This document shows positions 19,013-24,941 of a stretch of 36,240 nucleotides of DNA, piece by piece; position 1 is the first letter of the stretch; each line of letters starts with the position of its first letter. A program made the position numbers and the translations under genes. The stretch covers positions 1 to 36,240 of the forward strand of contig CAJQQC010000040.1 in NCBI GenBank assembly GCA_905480385.1. The letters are read 5' to 3'. The notes beneath the pieces were generated by a model, which did no database searches, was not told the DNA's origin, and saw only the letters and a list, made by a program, of their open reading frames with translations. The DNA is from an uncultured Winogradskyella sp. Its GTDB lineage: Bacteria; Bacteroidota; Bacteroidia; Flavobacteriales; Flavobacteriaceae.

Positions 19013-19759
19013 ATGAAATTCTTCAAGTATATTTTCTGGATTTTTTACCGTATTTGGTTTTACATTTTGGTGGCAATTCCGATTTTGGTGTTGCTTCCTT
19101 TTTTATTGGTGTCAATATCCAGAGAGCAGTGGTATCCATATTTCTTTAAACTAGCGCGTTTATGGGCCAAATTTATTTTGGTTGGTATGGGTTATAATTA
19201 TAAGATAGAAAGATTACAAACGCCAGATACTAAAGCAAGTTATATGTTTGTGGCTAATCATACATCAATGACAGACATAATGCTTATGCTAACATCGGTT
19301 AAAAACCCATTTGTGTTTGTTGGGAAAAAGGAATTGGCAAAGATTCCGCTATTTGGATTTTTTTATAAACGCACTTGTATTCTGGTAGACAGAAGTAGTT
19401 CTAAGAGTCGACAAGCTGTTTTTTTGAGAGCACAACGTCGATTAAGACAAGGTTTGAGTATTTGTATTTTTCCTGAAGGCGGTGTACCAGATGAATCTAT
19501 TGTTTTAGATACTTTTAAAGATGGTGCATTTAGGATGGCTATAAATCAACAGATACCTATTGTACCGATGACATTTTATGATAATAAAAAACGTTTTTCA
19601 TTTTCATTTTTTAGTGGTAGTCCAGGTAAAATGCGTGTCAAAATTCATAAGTTCTTCTCTACGGAAGGATTGACAATTGACGATACAAGAACATTGAATG
19701 ATACTGTTAGGACTTTAATCTTAGAAGATTTATCCAAAGACCAGAAACTTATAAATTAA
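19013..19759 (+). CDS. 1-acyl-sn-glycerol-3-phosphate acyltransferase (PlsC family)
   Basis: Transfers an acyl chain to lysophosphatidic acid, making phosphatidic acid for membrane phospholipids. The 248-residue protein has a strongly hydrophobic N-terminal anchor (about 5-35), then the acyltransferase core. The catalytic NHTSMTD (HX4D, His83 and Asp88) and the substrate-binding FPEGG (153-157) are intact, with VDRSSSKSRQ between them. It is a single gene, divergent from trpS, and is followed by a bidirectional terminator. The name plsC is likely, but some family members act on other acyl acceptors such as ornithine lipids, so the exact substrate is not proven. Confidence 0.9.
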   Translation: MKFFKYIFWIFYRIWFYILVAIPILVLLPFLLVSISREQWYPYFFKLARLWAKFILVGMGYNYKIERLQTPDTKASYMFVANHTSMTDIMLMLTSVKNPFVFVGKKELAKIPLFGFFYKRTCILVDRSSSKSRQAVFLRAQRRLRQGLSICIFPEGGVPDESIVLDTFKDGAFRMAINQQIPIVPMTFYDNKKRFSFSFFSGSPGKMRVKIHKFFSTEGLTIDDTRTLNDTVRTLILEDLSKDQKLIN

Positions 19760-19760
19760 A

Positions 19761-19790
19761 AAAGTCGCTCAAACCACTGAGCGACCTTTT
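19761..19790. terminator. Bidirectional intrinsic terminator
   Basis: The perfect 8-bp arms GTCGCTCA (19764-19771) and TGAGCGAC (19778-19785) have a 6-base loop. There is a T-run on the plus side and an A-run (T-run on the minus strand) on the other. It lies between the convergent plsC-like and anti-sigma/barrel genes and can serve both. Confidence 0.9.
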
Positions 19791-19859: not shown

Positions 19860-21383
19860 CTAGAATTTAAAGCTTAAACCTGTATATACGCCAATAAAAA
19901 ATGGTTTAAAATCACCTGATGTATTATTGAACGTATTTAATTGATACTTGAATTTTGGTTCAAGATTTATATTAATTTTTTCTGATAAACGATAATCAAC
20001 ACCAACGCCAAAATTGGCACTAAAACTTGTGTTATTAAAGTTGTTGGCCACGCCAATTAAAGTACTTTGACCATTGATGTCTGCCGAGATTTCGTTCTCG
20101 TTAAGTAAAAGGGTACTAAATCCACCACTTAGATTTACACCAAGTTTTTTGTCTATCACACGATACTCAACTTCCAAAGGAATTTCTATAAAACCAAAAC
20201 GTTGTTCTAAACTACCGGTTTGTAATGTGTTAATAGCTTCTGGCACTGAGTTTTGAGAAATTCTTGGGCGACTAATAAGCATTAAAGAGGCATAGTTAAC
20301 GTCGCTATTAAGTTGGACATTTTGCAGTCTGCTAGAAGCTGCGTCAGAGTTTGCAGAAAATGAATTATCTGACAATACAATAACATTATTAGTCGTGTTA
20401 TTAAAACTAACGCGATTAATTCCTGCAGTAATTTTAAGCCTATTATTTACAGCATAACTTCCTTTAACTCCATAGCTCATACTAATATCACTAGTAGTAG
20501 TATTAGAATCAAACTGAGCATCAATCGAAGAGCCTTTACCTAAAGAATTGAAATAAACCGGCGCAACATTGGGCGCAATACTCCACCGGCGGATTTCTCT
20601 TTCTTCTTCATTATTAGTTTTTGCCTCAGCAATTGCCTCTTCTATGTCGTGGCCTTTATCTTTTTCTGCTATTTTTTCAGATATTTCAGTAAATATGGTT
20701 CCTTCTGTATTAGAAGTATTACTAACAGTTTTATCTGTTTTTACAACAGCATTAGTTTCGTTTGAGTCAGAATTTAAAATGGCTTTAATCTCTTCTTGAG
20801 ACTTAAGCTGAATTTTATTTTCTGCTTCAGTTTTATTCTTTTGTACGTATTTATTTGAAGTTGAGGTGATAGATTTTCCATTAGGTTCTATACCACTTAC
20901 TGATGAAAACGTTTCTTTCTGTTTTTTAGTTGAGGTAGAATTTTGAACTGCAACTACAGTATTATTTTTGCTAGAGTTTGAATTTAAAAGCGGTGATTTT
21001 GAATAAGCATCTTTTCCTTGATTATCCTCGTTTTTAATCGAATTACCCTTTTCTAAATTATCTGAAGCGATAATAGTATTTTCTTTTTGTAAAGCGGCGT
21101 CTTTATCTGATTTTTTATTGTTCTCTATTTCAGTATTATTAGAATCAGAGTCTGCAACAACTGTTGTATCATCAGTATTATTAAAAGTAGTTCCAATAGC
21201 AAACATAAGCACAAGTACAGCTGCAACGCCACCAAGTTTCCACAAAATCGGTATGATGCGTTGCTTTTTCTTTTTCTTATCAAGTCTAGCTTCAATGCCT
21301 TCCCAAAGCTTGTCGTTTGGCATAACATCAAAATCCCTAAACTTTTCTTGAAACAGTCTGTCGATATGTTTTTTATCGCTCAT
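19860..21383 (-). CDS. Anti-sigma-like membrane protein with C-terminal outer-membrane beta-barrel
   Basis: A 507-residue protein with an unusual layout. Residues 1-42 are charged and cytoplasmic, with a motif seen in Bacteroidota proteins encoded beside ECF sigma factors (IDRLFQEKFRDFDVMPNDKL). One transmembrane helix follows (about 43-67, after a KKKKKQR stop-transfer-like cluster). Residues about 70-265 are a low-complexity Ser/Asn/Lys/Glu-rich linker. The last 240 residues show alternating strands and porin-like sequence (MSYGVKGSYAVNNRLKITAG; FSANFGVGVDYRLSEKINI) and end in GLSFKF, a C-terminal Phe as used for beta-barrel assembly. The gene lies 2 bases after the sigma factor stop. It probably regulates that sigma factor; a link to outer-membrane state is inference. 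Confidence 0.8.
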   Translation of the reverse strand: MSDKKHIDRLFQEKFRDFDVMPNDKLWEGIEARLDKKKKKQRIIPILWKLGGVAAVLVLMFAIGTTFNNTDDTTVVADSDSNNTEIENNKKSDKDAALQKENTIIASDNLEKGNSIKNEDNQGKDAYSKSPLLNSNSSKNNTVVAVQNSTSTKKQKETFSSVSGIEPNGKSITSTSNKYVQKNKTEAENKIQLKSQEEIKAILNSDSNETNAVVKTDKTVSNTSNTEGTIFTEISEKIAEKDKGHDIEEAIAEAKTNNEEEREIRRWSIAPNVAPVYFNSLGKGSSIDAQFDSNTTTSDISMSYGVKGSYAVNNRLKITAGINRVSFNNTTNNVIVLSDNSFSANSDAASSRLQNVQLNSDVNYASLMLISRPRISQNSVPEAINTLQTGSLEQRFGFIEIPLEVEYRVIDKKLGVNLSGGFSTLLLNENEISADINGQSTLIGVANNFNNTSFSANFGVGVDYRLSEKININLEPKFKYQLNTFNNTSGDFKPFFIGVYTGLSFKF

Positions 21384-21385
21384 TT

Positions 21386-21928
21386 TTATAAGGATTGCGA
21401 ATTTACACTCGCTTTATAGTCTTTAATTTTTTGTTTTAAAATCATCCTCGCACGTGCTAGGTTTGATTTTGATGTGCCATTAGATATTTCTAACATTTTA
21501 CCAATTTCGTTATGCGAAAAACCATCCATAACGTATAAGTTAAACACCAACCGATAACGGTCTGGTAAATCCTGAATAATCTGAAGTAAAAAATCTAAGT
21601 CTACTTCATCATTACCAATTTCTATATCTACATCTTCAATCGCACTTTCATCAATTAAGCTATAAACTTGCACTTTTCGATAACGCTTTAAAGCAGTGTT
21701 AATAGCTATGCGTTTTATCCAACCTTCAAAAGAACCTTTGTTTTTGTATTGTTCTATTTTATTAAAAATAGTTACAAACGCATCCTGTAAATTATCTTCT
21801 GCCTCGACATAGTTTTTTGAATACTTGAGGCATATGGAGAACAATCTACTGGCATAAAGCTTATATAATTGACTCTGAGCACTAGCATTCTTTTTTTTAC
21901 AGTCTCTAATGAGTTCTTGTAAACTCAA
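21386..21928 (-). CDS. RNA polymerase sigma-70 factor, ECF subfamily
   Basis: A 180-residue alternative sigma factor with sigma regions 2 and 4 only. Region 2 contains YVEAEDNLQDAFVTIFNKI followed by GSFEGWIKRIAINTALKRYR. Region 4 contains LPDRYRLVFNLYVMDGFSHN and the helix-turn-helix EIGKMLEISNGTSKSNLARA. It directs RNA polymerase to a small regulon, commonly for envelope stress or surface functions in this phylum. The gene sits 26 bases after the small lipoprotein gene and 2 bases before the anti-sigma-like/barrel gene, so the three form one operon. The target promoters are unknown. Confidence 0.95.
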   Translation of the reverse strand: MSLQELIRDCKKKNASAQSQLYKLYASRLFSICLKYSKNYVEAEDNLQDAFVTIFNKIEQYKNKGSFEGWIKRIAINTALKRYRKVQVYSLIDESAIEDVDIEIGNDEVDLDFLLQIIQDLPDRYRLVFNLYVMDGFSHNEIGKMLEISNGTSKSNLARARMILKQKIKDYKASVNSQSL

Positions 21929-21954
21929 GGGGTTGAGGGGATTTAATTTAATAT

Positions 21955-22371
21955 TTACTCTACGACTGGCACTTCTACTATCAAATAATCGTCTTGTCCA
22001 TTCGGACTACTTCCTTGATAAAACTGAAATATGTATGGGCCAGTACTTAATACTAAAAAGTCAAATGACACTGAAGCTTCTTCAGCGTTTGTTGAGCAAT
22101 CTGGGTCATTGTATACCGTGTCTACAACAGCTACCGTTCTTGTATTTCCGTCAGGTTGAAATATAAAGTCGTTAAACTCGTGACATCCGTTAGGTCTCAA
22201 GTAATCAACAGTAATTTCATAGGTTTCTCCTAATGTAAATTCGGCAGGTACATCTACACTTGTAATAGACATTATCTCTAATTCAAAGTTTATATCTCTT
22301 CCATCATTAATCTCACATGATAGTAGCGTTCCTAAAACAAATAATACGAGTAATTTTTTCATTTTTTTCAT
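21955..22371 (-). CDS. Small lipoprotein at the head of the sigma-factor operon
   Basis: A 138-residue predicted lipoprotein. Two possible starts exist (22371 and, three codons later, 22362); both give the same signal, ending LGTLLSC (Cys19 from the first start) followed by EINDGRDINFE. The acidic residues after the Cys are typical of surface-exported lipoproteins in this phylum. The mature part is a beta-rich domain with a probable disulfide pair (PNGCHEFNDF; NDPDCSTNAEEAS) and a GPYIFQFYQGSSPNGQDDYL end. I do not recognise a named family. The 26-base gap to the sigma gene suggests it is expressed with it and could be a sensor or a target. Confidence 0.75.
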   Translation of the reverse strand: MKKMKKLLVLFVLGTLLSCEINDGRDINFELEIMSITSVDVPAEFTLGETYEITVDYLRPNGCHEFNDFIFQPDGNTRTVAVVDTVYNDPDCSTNAEEASVSFDFLVLSTGPYIFQFYQGSSPNGQDDYLIVEVPVVE

Positions 22372-22433
22372 TTAAAATTTATGTTTGCTATGGGCAAGAT
22401 GCAAAAAACTTTAAAAGGTTGCGTCTAAAAACA

Positions 22434-22463
22434 AAAAAATCCTGAAAATTTTCAGGATTTTTT
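22434..22463 (-). terminator. Intrinsic terminator of recA
   Basis: A perfect 15-bp inverted repeat: AAAAAATCCTGAAAA (22434-22448) and TTTTCAGGATTTTTT (22449-22463). Read on the minus strand, it begins just after the recA stop and ends in a T-rich run. It is symmetric and could also work on the plus strand. Confidence 0.9.
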
Positions 22464-22464
22464 A

Positions 22465-23472
22465 TTAGGCTTCTATTTCATTAACTTTTGCCCTTACTTT
22501 TTCTTCTAGTTCATCCATCAATTCAGGATTATCTTTTATTAATGCTTTTACGGCATCCCGGCCTTGGCCGAGTTTAGTATCGTCATAGCTAAACCATGAC
22601 CCCGCCTTTTTAATAATATCGTGTTCTACAGCAATATCTAGGATCTCTCCAACTTTAGAAATACCCTGACCATACATAATATCAAATTCTGCTAATTTAA
22701 AAGGTGGAGCGACTTTATTTTTTACAACTTTCACTCGCGTTTTGTTACCCATTACAGTACTATTGCTATCTTTAATTTGAGTAGAACGTCTTATATCCAA
22801 GCGGACAGAAGCGTAAAACTTAAGGGCATTACCACCAGTAGTCGTTTCTGGGTTGCCAAACATAACACCAATTTTTTCACGTAATTGATTAATGAAAAAC
22901 ATTGTACAATTAGTTTTACTAATCGATCCTGTCAATTTTCTCAAGGCTTGAGACATTAAACGTGCATGTAATCCCATTTTAGAATCTCCCATTTCTCCTT
23001 CAATTTCACTTTTAGGAGTCAATGCAGCAACAGAATCTATAACAATAATATCAATTGCACCAGAGCGCACTAAATTGTCTGCAATCTCTAAAGCTTGCTC
23101 TCCATTATCTGGCTGAGAAATAATTAGGTTCTCTAAATCAACACCTAACTTTTCAGCATAAAAACGGTCAAAAGCATGCTCTGCATCAATGAAAGCAGCA
23201 ATTCCACCCGCTTTTTGTGCTTCAGCGATAGCGTGTAATGTTAATGTGGTTTTACCAGAAGATTCTGGGCCATATATTTCAATAACTCTTCCTCTAGGAT
23301 AGCCTCCAACGCCTAATGCAATATCTAATCCAAGTGAACCTGAAGAAATCGCATCGACATCTTCAATGGCTTGGTCACTCATTTTCATTACCGTTCCTTT
23401 TCCGTAAGCCTTATCTAACTTGTCTAACGTTAGTTTAAGCGCCTTTAATTTTGCATCTTTTTCACTACTCAT
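22465..23472 (-). CDS. recA: Recombinase RecA
   Basis: The strand-exchange ATPase of homologous recombination and the co-protease for LexA-type repressors. The 335-residue length is normal. Walker A is GPESSGKT (68-75). Other RecA hallmarks are [18 protein letters not shown], the Walker B region [19 protein letters not shown], the loop-1/loop-2 stretches [17 protein letters not shown] and [20 protein letters not shown], and the basic C-terminal domain. It is a single gene with its own strong terminator. No LexA-like operator is recognised upstream. Confidence 0.98.
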
Positions 23473-23632
23473 GTATTCAGTTTTTTGCTATTAATCTTGA
23501 AGGTAAAAATAAGACTTCTTTTAACAGATTACAATTTAAGACGCAACCATTTTATAGTTTCTGCATCTACTAATTGAAAAAGGAAAAAATTGCTATGAAA
23601 AAGCTTTTGATTTTGGATTAAAAATTTTAGAA

Positions 23633-23740
23633 ATGGGATTTTTAGCAAAAATTATTTTCAGTAAAACTTTAGGTGTGACAACAGCTGTTTTAGTTTTCGG
23701 TTGTTGCAAAGCCGATGGTGGTTTGCTCGTTTTAGTATGA
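23633..23740 (+). CDS. Possible 35-residue membrane or secreted peptide
   Basis: In the 404-base gap between recA and trhO, an ATG at 23633 opens 35 codons to TGA at 23738. The product starts MGFLAKIIFSKTLG, has a hydrophobic core (VTTAVLVFG), a Cys-Cys pair at 24-25, and ends KADGGLLVLV. A shorter ORF (MKKLLILD) lies just upstream. A strong terminator-like hairpin at 23779-23814, with no other plus-strand gene to serve, suggests that something here is transcribed. I do not recognise a family. It could instead be a non-coding RNA or chance. Confidence 0.35.
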   Translation: MGFLAKIIFSKTLGVTTAVLVFGCCKADGGLLVLV

Positions 23741-23778
23741 TTTAATTATAAATTAATATTAATAACGAGTTAGTCCTC

Positions 23779-23814
23779 AAAAAAGTACTTTGATTTTTAT
23801 CAAAGTGCTTTTTT
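23779..23814 (+). terminator. Intrinsic terminator with no assigned upstream gene
   Basis: The arms AAGTACTTTGAT (23783-23794) and ATCAAAGTGCTT (23799-23810) have one wobble and a 4-base loop, extended by an A-run and a T-run on either side. recA points away and trhO starts downstream, so it would end a transcript from the small-ORF region. It is also symmetric enough to work on the minus strand. Confidence 0.75.
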
Positions 23815-23826
23815 CGTTTAAAAAAT

Positions 23827-23834
23827 TACCTTTG
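23827..23834 (+). promoter_or_regulatory. Candidate -7 promoter element for trhO (TACCTTTG)
   Basis: An exact TAnnTTTG match ending 42 bases before the trhO ATG and just downstream of the terminator. No good -33 TTG at the right spacing. Confidence 0.55.
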
Positions 23835-23876
23835 TACCTGAAAATAAATTCTTTAACCTTAAAACATTAGTATAGC

Positions 23877-24941
23877 ATGCAACTGTACAATAACTTAAGC
23901 GGCAAGGAAAGAGCAGAACTTATCGAAAAAGCGGGCAAAGACCGTTTGACAATCTCTTTCTACAAATACGCAAAAATCGGAAACCCCGAACTTTTTAGAA
24001 ATCACTTATTTATCAATTGGAATGACATAGATGTACTTGGACGTATTTATGTTGCTCATGAAGGTATTAATGCGCAGTTGTCTGTTCCTGCAGATAATTT
24101 TCAATTGTTTAAAAACCACTTAGATTCTATTACGTTCCTTGAAAATGTAAGATTAAATATTGCTGTTGAGCACGATAATTTTGCTTTTTTAAAACTAAAA
24201 GTTAAAGTCCGAAATAAGATAGTCGCCGATGGTTTAAATGATGATACTTTTGATGCTACAAATAGAGGTGTACATGTTAATGCAAAAAAGTTTAATGAAC
24301 TCATTGAAGATCCTGATACAGTTTTAGTAGACATGCGTAATCATTACGAGAGCGAAATAGGACATTTTAAAAATGCAGTGACTCCAGATGTAGACACCTT
24401 TAGAGAATCTTTAGATTTAATTGAAGAAGATTTAAGAGCGCATAAGGAAGATAAAAAATTAGTGATGTACTGTACTGGAGGCATACGTTGCGAAAAAGCT
24501 AGTGCTTACTACAAACACAAAGGTTTTAAAAATGTATTTCAACTTGAAGGCGGCATAATTAACTACGTCCGCCAAATTGAAGCCCAAGGTTTAGAAAATA
24601 AATTTATCGGCAAAAACTTCGTATTTGATCAACGCCGTTCAGAACGAATTTCAGAGGATGTGATTTCTAATTGCCATCAATGTGGCGAACCTGCAGATAT
24701 GCATACAAATTGTGCTAACGAGGCTTGTCATCTTTTGTTTATCCAATGCGATAATTGTAAAGAAAAAATGAATAATTGCTGTTCAACTAACTGTATGGAA
24801 ATAATTGAATTATCCTATGAGGAGCAAAAGGCATTACGGAAAGGTCAAGGAAACAGTAACGATATCTTTAAAAAAGGACGTACAGAACATTTGCCATATA
24901 AAAAGGATTTACGAAATATATTTGATACTTTAAAGAAGTAA
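23877..24941 (+). CDS. trhO: Oxygen-dependent tRNA uridine(34) hydroxylase TrhO (rhodanese family)
   Basis: Forms 5-hydroxyuridine at the wobble position of tRNA, the first step towards cmo5U/mo5U modification. At 354 residues the order is an N-terminal acylphosphatase-like/UPF0176 domain with RIYVAHEGINAQLSVPA, then a rhodanese domain starting DTVLVDMRNHYESEIGHFKN. The active-site loop is MYCTGGIRCEKASAY (Cys199 and Cys205), diagnostic of the YceA/TrhO group. The end is a cysteine-rich zinc-binding-like region (NCHQCGEPADMHTNC; CDNCKEKMNNCCSTNC), also usual in this family. It is a single gene with its own promoter and terminator. Confidence 0.94.
   Translation: MQLYNNLSGKERAELIEKAGKDRLTISFYKYAKIGNPELFRNHLFINWNDIDVLGRIYVAHEGINAQLSVPADNFQLFKNHLDSITFLENVRLNIAVEHDNFAFLKLKVKVRNKIVADGLNDDTFDATNRGVHVNAKKFNELIEDPDTVLVDMRNHYESEIGHFKNAVTPDVDTFRESLDLIEEDLRAHKEDKKLVMYCTGGIRCEKASAYYKHKGFKNVFQLEGGIINYVRQIEAQGLENKFIGKNFVFDQRRSERISEDVISNCHQCGEPADMHTNCANEACHLLFIQCDNCKEKMNNCCSTNCMEIIELSYEEQKALRKGQGNSNDIFKKGRTEHLPYKKDLRNIFDTLKK

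What the first reader, a model, noticed from the sequence alone, without database searches (positions are those of the whole stretch)
19860..21928. Sigma factor with an anti-sigma-like protein that spans to an outer-membrane barrel
One 507-residue chain appears to hold a cytoplasmic anti-sigma-like segment, one inner-membrane helix, a linker of about 195 polar residues and a beta-barrel ending in Phe. If intact in the cell, it would physically connect the outer membrane to the ECF sigma factor encoded 2 bases upstream. The usual design uses separate receptor and anti-sigma proteins. Similar genes are common in flavobacterial genomes, but I know of no described mechanism.
Basis: partly seen in the sequence, partly recalled or inferred. 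Interest (0 to 1): 0.75.

Follow-up and report, generated by a model that had tools for sequence, protein, structure and literature searches.

The report
Two-membrane tethered anti-sigma factor
A flavobacterium carries a gene for one protein chain predicted to reach from inside the cell, across both membranes, to an outer-membrane barrel, where it would likely hold back the gene-switching sigma factor encoded beside it; this design is already described in gut Bacteroides, and the new parts here are a shared promoter sequence and the envelope genes it would likely switch on.

The parts
19860..21383 (-). dma-like gene, 507 residues: anti-sigma-type N-terminus, inner-membrane helix, linker, outer-membrane barrel
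21252..21383 (-). codons 1-44: predicted cytoplasmic two-helix anti-sigma segment (W27 and I30 invariant, F11 and P22 nearly so in 25 diverse sequences)
   Evidence: sigma match beside this module in 30 of 30 class-level loci
21189..21251 (-). codons 45-65: hydrophobic stretch, predicted inner-membrane helix
   Evidence: read from the sequence; helix 46-64 in the model at low confidence
20601..21188 (-). codons 66-261: variable polar linker, predicted disordered
19863..20600 (-). codons 262-507: predicted eight-stranded outer-membrane barrel ending in Phe
21386..21928 (-). ECF sigma factor (das-like), 180 residues, TTG start
21955..22371 (-). first gene of the operon: 138-residue predicted lipoprotein, beta-sandwich, invariant C19, C63, C92; the invariant Met is residue 4, so the true start may lie there
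   Evidence: (match in 96 of 108 loci)
22397..22423 (-). ECF-type promoter signature before the operon, CGCAACCTTTTAAAGTTTTTTGCATCT
22434..22463 (-). intrinsic terminator behind recA, separates recA from the operon
19759..19790 (-). intrinsic terminator behind the dma-like gene
23542..23568 (+). second copy of the promoter signature, between recA and trhO
   Evidence: (64 of 65 loci, window included)
23569..23817 (+). predicted short transcript from the second promoter, ending in a strong hairpin with a T run (23779-23814)
23633..23740 (+). small ORF with a peptide of the CKADGG type (35 residues here, 30 in most others); such a peptide in 26 of 64 loci

Best explanation
The 507-residue chain is likely a Dma/Reo-type anti-sigma factor: its N-terminal segment would hold the ECF sigma factor encoded 2 bases upstream, one predicted helix would cross the inner membrane, a predicted disordered linker would span the periplasm and a predicted eight-stranded barrel would sit in the outer membrane. 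Shown by sequence: the intact frame, the conserved-variable-conserved pattern, the sigma gene beside it in the relatives examined, the three-gene group (lipoprotein, sigma, anti-sigma) between two terminator-like hairpins, and one promoter signature before this group and again between recA and trhO. Predicted: the barrel fold, the disordered linker and the topology. Inferred: that a seated barrel keeps the chain in its holding state, and that outer-membrane damage or failed barrel assembly ends this (probably through cleavage or loss of the anti-sigma segment), so that the sigma factor transcribes its own operon, the short transcript beside recA and, in relatives with larger genomes, a set of outer-membrane and surface genes. 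Because the anti-sigma gene lies in its own predicted regulon, the response would shut itself off once new barrels assemble.
For: Barrel. Pattern of conservation. A sigma match beside the chain in 108 of 108 loci with a match to the long protein, the window included; in one (L104) it is a partial sigma match before a 219-residue frame. The same in 30 of 30 class-level loci chosen by the N-terminal module alone, seven of them the window and six genomes already seen, also before chains of about 250 residues, too short for linker and barrel, which ties the N-terminus rather than the barrel to the sigma factor. Operon and terminators. Promoter signature found in 87 of 108 loci, 85 of them with 16 bases between GCAAC and CATCT; 2 exact copies in the window, 0.02 matches expected at up to 2 mismatches; up to one mismatch in 41 of 41 genomes of the genus, 3-13 copies each, reversed pattern 10 copies in all; in 18 of 18 genomes with a strong match to the chain and 5 of 17 without one, one copy each. 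Genes behind it: export-type N-termini in 39 of 53 against 102 of 296 sampled genes; Pfam above cut-off on ten representatives: TonB receptor plug, DUF3575, T9SS tails in two. Precedent: Dma1/Das1 and Dma2/Das2 (PMC13088901); the pair called EcfO-Reo, induced by the toxin BcpT and by Bd-A, a BamA inhibitor (PMC9308784 and PMC13114119, passages).
Against: No binding, localisation or expression was measured. The N-terminus is short (about 44 residues), has no solved relative by sequence (best E 0.033) and no Pfam or NCBIfam match. The paired co-variation test (132 of 140 pairs, Neff 48, top-20 sum 4.37 against 3.88 +/- 0.06, largest 4.01, permuted within groups) cannot be separated from phylogeny, and its single best pair (0.267) is not above the largest permuted value (0.272). 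Helix and N-terminus are modelled with low confidence. In the window's own genome (85% complete) only the two copies beside recA are convincing; one 1-mismatch and one 2-mismatch site have no sensible gene behind them, so the wide regulon rests on relatives, in which a further such pair could use the same signature. In 400 kb sampled from one relative the signature was absent even at two mismatches, which is too little sequence to weigh. The strong-match genomes are 17 of 18 from one family, so kinship is a confounder. The signal-sequence rule is crude and home-made, with a lower length limit for test genes (60) than for baseline genes (100).
Confidence: 0.72

Rival explanations
1. The chain is made as one but cut in the periplasm after export; the barrel half works alone in the outer membrane and the inner-membrane half is an ordinary single-pass anti-sigma factor released by regulated proteolysis, so that no physical link exists in the resting cell.
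For: The linker is poorly conserved in sequence, and chains of about 250 residues, too short for linker and barrel (their C-termini were not scanned for domains), exist with the same N-terminal module and a sigma gene beside it.
Against: The parts stay fused in one frame: in the 80 named loci the best tblastn segment runs from residue 1 to 501-507, and 27 of 29 further loci gave one frame of 438-641 residues. Both sets were chosen by similarity to the fused chain, so split genes would be under-sampled, and a cut after synthesis is not excluded.
Confidence: 0.25
2. The N-terminus does not act on the sigma factor; it is an inner-membrane anchor for an OmpA-like tether between the membranes, and the shared operon only reflects a common envelope task.
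For: The N-terminus is very short and matches no known anti-sigma domain model.
Against: The N-terminal module lies beside a sigma gene in 30 of 30 loci picked without regard to the barrel, and loss of the equivalent genes is reported to free the sigma factor in B. thetaiotaomicron and P. vulgatus (PMC13088901, PMC9308784, PMC13114119, passages).
Confidence: 0.06
3. The barrel binds a ligand (a glycan or a toxin) and signals occupancy, instead of sensing assembly or damage.
For: Residues 341-380 are the least conserved part of the barrel, as expected of an exposed loop; the Dma2 authors propose sensing of an unknown glycan (PMC13088901, Discussion).
Against: The predicted barrel resembles small eight-stranded ones, and the predicted regulon in relatives is a mixture of envelope genes rather than one transport locus.
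Confidence: 0.25

Closest known systems
Dma family (Dma1, Dma2 with Das1, Das2), Bacteroides thetaiotaomicron, PMC13088901
   Same: N-terminal sigma-binding part, one helix, long disordered tether, C-terminal barrel; ECF sigma gene adjacent; [quoted passage not shown]
   Different: Found here in Flavobacteriaceae; the operon starts with a small lipoprotein and follows recA; whether the sigma factor is of group ECF21 was not tested; the lipoprotein had no Pfam match at all; effect on vesicles unknown
EcfO-Reo of Bacteroides fragilis and Phocaeicola vulgatus, PMC9308784 and PMC13114119
   Same: One anti-sigma chain from cytoplasm to outer-membrane barrel, sigma gene directly upstream, regulon that includes surface lipoproteins (NigD)
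   Different: Sequences and regulons were not compared here (no sequences at hand)
FecI/FecR/FecA-type surface signalling (recalled)
   Same: Outer-membrane event reaches a cytoplasmic ECF sigma factor
   Different: There the receptor and the anti-sigma factor are separate proteins and the receptor is a large TonB-dependent barrel; here one chain and a small barrel
RseA/sigmaE of Escherichia coli (recalled)
   Same: Inner-membrane anti-sigma factor answering outer-membrane protein trouble; regulon with envelope genes and small RNAs
   Different: RseA has no outer-membrane part

Membership tests
[quoted passage not shown]
   Residues 65-244 mostly pLDDT under 35; low conservation, 178-272 residues in 117 chains; a prediction only
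[quoted passage not shown]
   One hydrophobic stretch at 45-65 read from the sequence; helix 46-64 in the model at pLDDT 37-39; no topology program was run
[quoted passage not shown]
   Conserved module beside a sigma gene in 30 of 30 loci; co-variation test not decisive; no binding test
[quoted passage not shown]
   108 of 108 loci, window included
[quoted passage not shown]
   No ECF-group models at hand
[quoted passage not shown]
   Their sequences were not at hand; the 2024 naming paper is not held
[quoted passage not shown]
   Needs mutants
FecR-type anti-sigma with separate receptor | Separate TonB-dependent receptor gene in the operon | tested here: not met
   The three genes between the terminators are lipoprotein, sigma and the single chain

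The most novel reading that the evidence does not exclude
In flavobacteria the barrel is a built-in test piece for outer-membrane assembly: as long as each new anti-sigma chain can be inserted it silences the sigma factor, and when insertion fails the sigma factor fires a SigmaE-like core response made of a small surface lipoprotein, its own regulator and a 240-nucleotide regulatory RNA (in part coding a 30-residue peptide) on the far side of recA, with species-specific outer-membrane genes added on.
Probability: 0.28. Interest if true: 0.75.

Novelty: new member of a known kind. Interest (0 to 1): 0.45.

Why it matters
It takes a design known from a few gut Bacteroidales studies to the Flavobacteriaceae, where 27 of the 30 family genomes listed matched the chain (some weakly), and supplies what could make it testable there: a sharp promoter signature, a conserved three-gene operon with a defined lipoprotein partner, a predicted envelope regulon and a conserved short transcript beside recA. 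I found no held paper on how flavobacteria sense outer-membrane damage through such a pair; a reporter on this promoter would address it directly.

Tried and rejected
Searches used the promoter pattern with the spacer one base too long; kept as a negative control (13 of 41 genomes, one hit each) and repeated correctly. Rfam gave nothing at gathering score in 21900-24000 (five weaker matches). No PDB relative by sequence for the chain or for the N-terminal module at E below 0.03. Foldseek gave no match below E 1e-3 for the lipoprotein (best 0.013), so only 'beta-sandwich' is claimed. The looser signal-sequence rule (44 of 53) had a baseline of 148 of 296 and was replaced by the stricter one; the choice of the stricter rule was made after seeing this. 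The co-variation test counts as inconclusive; 8 of 140 loci were dropped there because no partner frame was found. Pairing of the short transcript with target leaders was looked at by eye only and dropped as chance. trhO as the main target of the second promoter was thought less likely because a strong hairpin with a T run lies between and a housekeeping-like motif follows it (by eye); but in four loci with long gaps (L010, L019, L029, L052) the signature stays 304-419 bases from trhO and over 1.1 kb from recA, so read-through into trhO is not excluded. Of the 21 loci without the operon promoter, 13 had less than 460 bases upstream or were not placed; among the 8 with full upstream sequence, L008 and L035 carry GTATCT in place of GCATCT (seen in the listing), the other six were not examined.

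Literature: searches listed no paper on such a pair in Flavobacteriaceae or on this promoter; the lists are capped and the library lacks most subscription papers, so this is weak. In F. psychrophilum (PMC9723704, passages) an ECF motif (SM6, with a CGT box) precedes an ECF/anti-sigma pair; by its description it is another motif. Seen as passages only: PMC7366714, PMC8999054, PMC12045153.

Full report
What is there. On the minus strand, directly behind recA, lie three genes: a 138-residue predicted lipoprotein (21955-22371), an ECF sigma factor (21386-21928, TTG start) and the 507-residue protein of the finding (19860-21383); the gaps are 26 and 2 bases. A terminator-like hairpin behind recA (22463-22434) and one behind the last gene (19790-19759) bound the group; both fold better than all 200 shuffles (z -5.1 and -6.3). 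The genome is a 2.2 Mb assembly in 182 contigs, 85% complete; the nearest named relatives are Winogradskyella.

The N-terminus and the sigma factor. The 110 loci L001-L110 are the window's own, 80 from a named-genome scan (the best 80 of 549) and 29 from an order-wide scan (63 of 196 genomes with a match). 108 of the 110 had a tblastn match to the long protein, and in all 108 a sigma match lies beside it, in L104 only a partial one before a 219-residue frame; the other two (L102, L105) have a sigma match too. The lipoprotein matched in 96 of 108 (in L098 on the far side of the chain), recA in 88 of 108, many of the rest being cut short. A profile of the first 71 positions alone (25 sequences) matched in 210 of 295 genomes of the class, in frames of very different length. 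In all 30 loci fetched there, seven of them the window and six genomes already seen, a sigma match lies beside it, also before seven chains of about 250 residues that are too short for linker and barrel. So the N-terminal module goes with the sigma factor, and the barrel is one of several C-terminal ends. A co-variation test between the two proteins exceeded its permutation control in the sum of its top 20 pairs, not in the single best pair, and cannot exclude shared ancestry as the cause.

Promoter. Upstream of the lipoprotein lies CGCAACC-N-TT-N11-GCATCT; a relaxed form (GCAAC, 14-20 bases, CATCT) was found within 900 bases upstream of sigma in 87 of 108 loci, 85 of them with exactly 16 bases. 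The window holds two exact copies, 0.02 matches expected: 22397-22423(-) before the operon and 23542-23568(+) between recA and trhO. The second copy (up to two mismatches) is kept in 64 of 65 loci where the recA-trhO gap could be read, window included; in the 65th it looks shifted by spacing. In 41 genomes of the genus, the own one included, the pattern at up to one mismatch occurs 3-13 times each, while the reversed pattern occurs 10 times in all and a spacer longer by one base 13 times in all. In 45 of the 196 order-level genomes that I picked, it occurs in 18 of 18 with a strong match to the long protein (E below 1e-50), 4 of 10 with a weak match and 5 of 17 with none, the last one copy each; the reversed pattern occurs in 5 of the 45. 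17 of the 18 are of one family, so kinship is a confounder, and one of them owes 8 of its 12 copies to a repeated element.

Regulon. I fetched 60 sites: 2 in the own genome and 58 in eight same-genus relatives; the list was capped. 53 had a frame of at least 60 residues starting within 400 bases. A crude rule for export-type N-termini was met by 39 of 53, against 102 of 296 sampled genes of at least 100 residues from one relative; by protein family 17 of 22, a family counting if any member met the rule (Fisher p about 1e-4). Six of the 53 are the operon's own lipoprotein. Five of the 14 misses are trhO and three are a surface protein read from a late start. Pfam on ten representatives, above cut-off: TonB receptor plug with carboxypeptidase-like domain, DUF3575, type IX secretion tails in two; the other six had none above cut-off. 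This points to an outer-membrane and surface regulon. In the window's own genome only the two copies beside recA are convincing.

The short transcript. Of the 64 loci with the second promoter, 62 have a conserved 5' segment, 26 a peptide ending CKADGG or alike, and 61 a hairpin with T run by a loose rule whose positions scatter, so that this last count is weak. In the window a hairpin at 23779-23814 folds at -17.2 kcal/mol, z -7.5. In the loci without the peptide the promoter and 5' segment stay, so an RNA function is my inference and the peptide may be an extra. No Rfam family matches at gathering score. In a few loci with long gaps the promoter stays near trhO instead of recA.

Lipoprotein. 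Its model is good (pLDDT 87.8, 94-98 in the folded part): an eight-strand beta-sandwich with three invariant cysteines, one the predicted lipid site and two perhaps a disulfide; no close solved fold was found.

Comparison with what is known. The Dma family of B. thetaiotaomicron has the same four parts and an adjacent ECF21 sigma factor; deletion is reported to free the sigma factor and raise vesicle release (PMC13088901: abstract, passages, Discussion). In P. vulgatus the pair now called EcfO-Reo has the same build, is induced by BcpT, a toxin that binds the lipid A-core, and by Bd-A, an inhibitor of BamA; loss of the anti-sigma gene gives longer O-antigen and partial protection against toxins (PMC9308784, PMC13114119: passages). 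The 2024 PNAS paper that named Dma and the 2013 EcfO paper were not read. By architecture and gene order the window's pair is of this kind; orthology was not tested because no Dma or Reo sequence was at hand.

How it likely works. Commitment: sequestration of the sigma factor by an intact, outer-membrane-seated chain, release on failure or damage of the barrel's seat, with the anti-sigma gene in its own regulon as the off switch. The response of EcfO-Reo to a BamA inhibitor is the best outside support for an assembly sensor. Shown: gene order, promoter signature, conservation. Predicted: fold and topology. Inferred: binding, signal, release.

Verdict. The extra findings (promoter, operon with lipoprotein, transcript beside recA, likely envelope regulon) make it a useful flavobacterial member of a known kind.

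Noticed in passing
23569-23817 (+): Short transcript predicted under the same promoter signature between recA and trhO; signature kept in 64 of 65 loci; 26 of 64 code a small peptide ending CKADGG or alike. Possibly a small RNA with a peptide.
   Followed up: partly
L022, recA-trhO gap: In place of the short transcript the second promoter is followed by a frame of 347 residues with a signal-peptide-like start and repeats (by eye).
   Followed up: no
L246, L251, L252, L256, L257, L260, L265: Same N-terminal module and sigma gene beside it, but chains of 246-259 residues, too short for linker and barrel: a short form of the same anti-sigma class.
   Followed up: partly
L253, 1387-3033 (+): The N-terminal module matches twice in tandem at the start of a 548-residue chain (two profile matches).
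   Followed up: no
genomes of family f5 (e.g. G120, G172, G187): The N-terminal part matches at the start of frames of 845-861 residues, so longer chains of another kind exist.
   Followed up: no
L104: A partial sigma match (residues 1-111) directly before a 219-residue frame with the barrel end; possibly a shortened or rearranged pair.
   Followed up: no
G079, eight identical copies of CGCAACCGTGTTTCCTCTTGGGCATCT: A repeated element carries a one-mismatch copy of the promoter signature; likely chance inside a mobile element.
   Followed up: no
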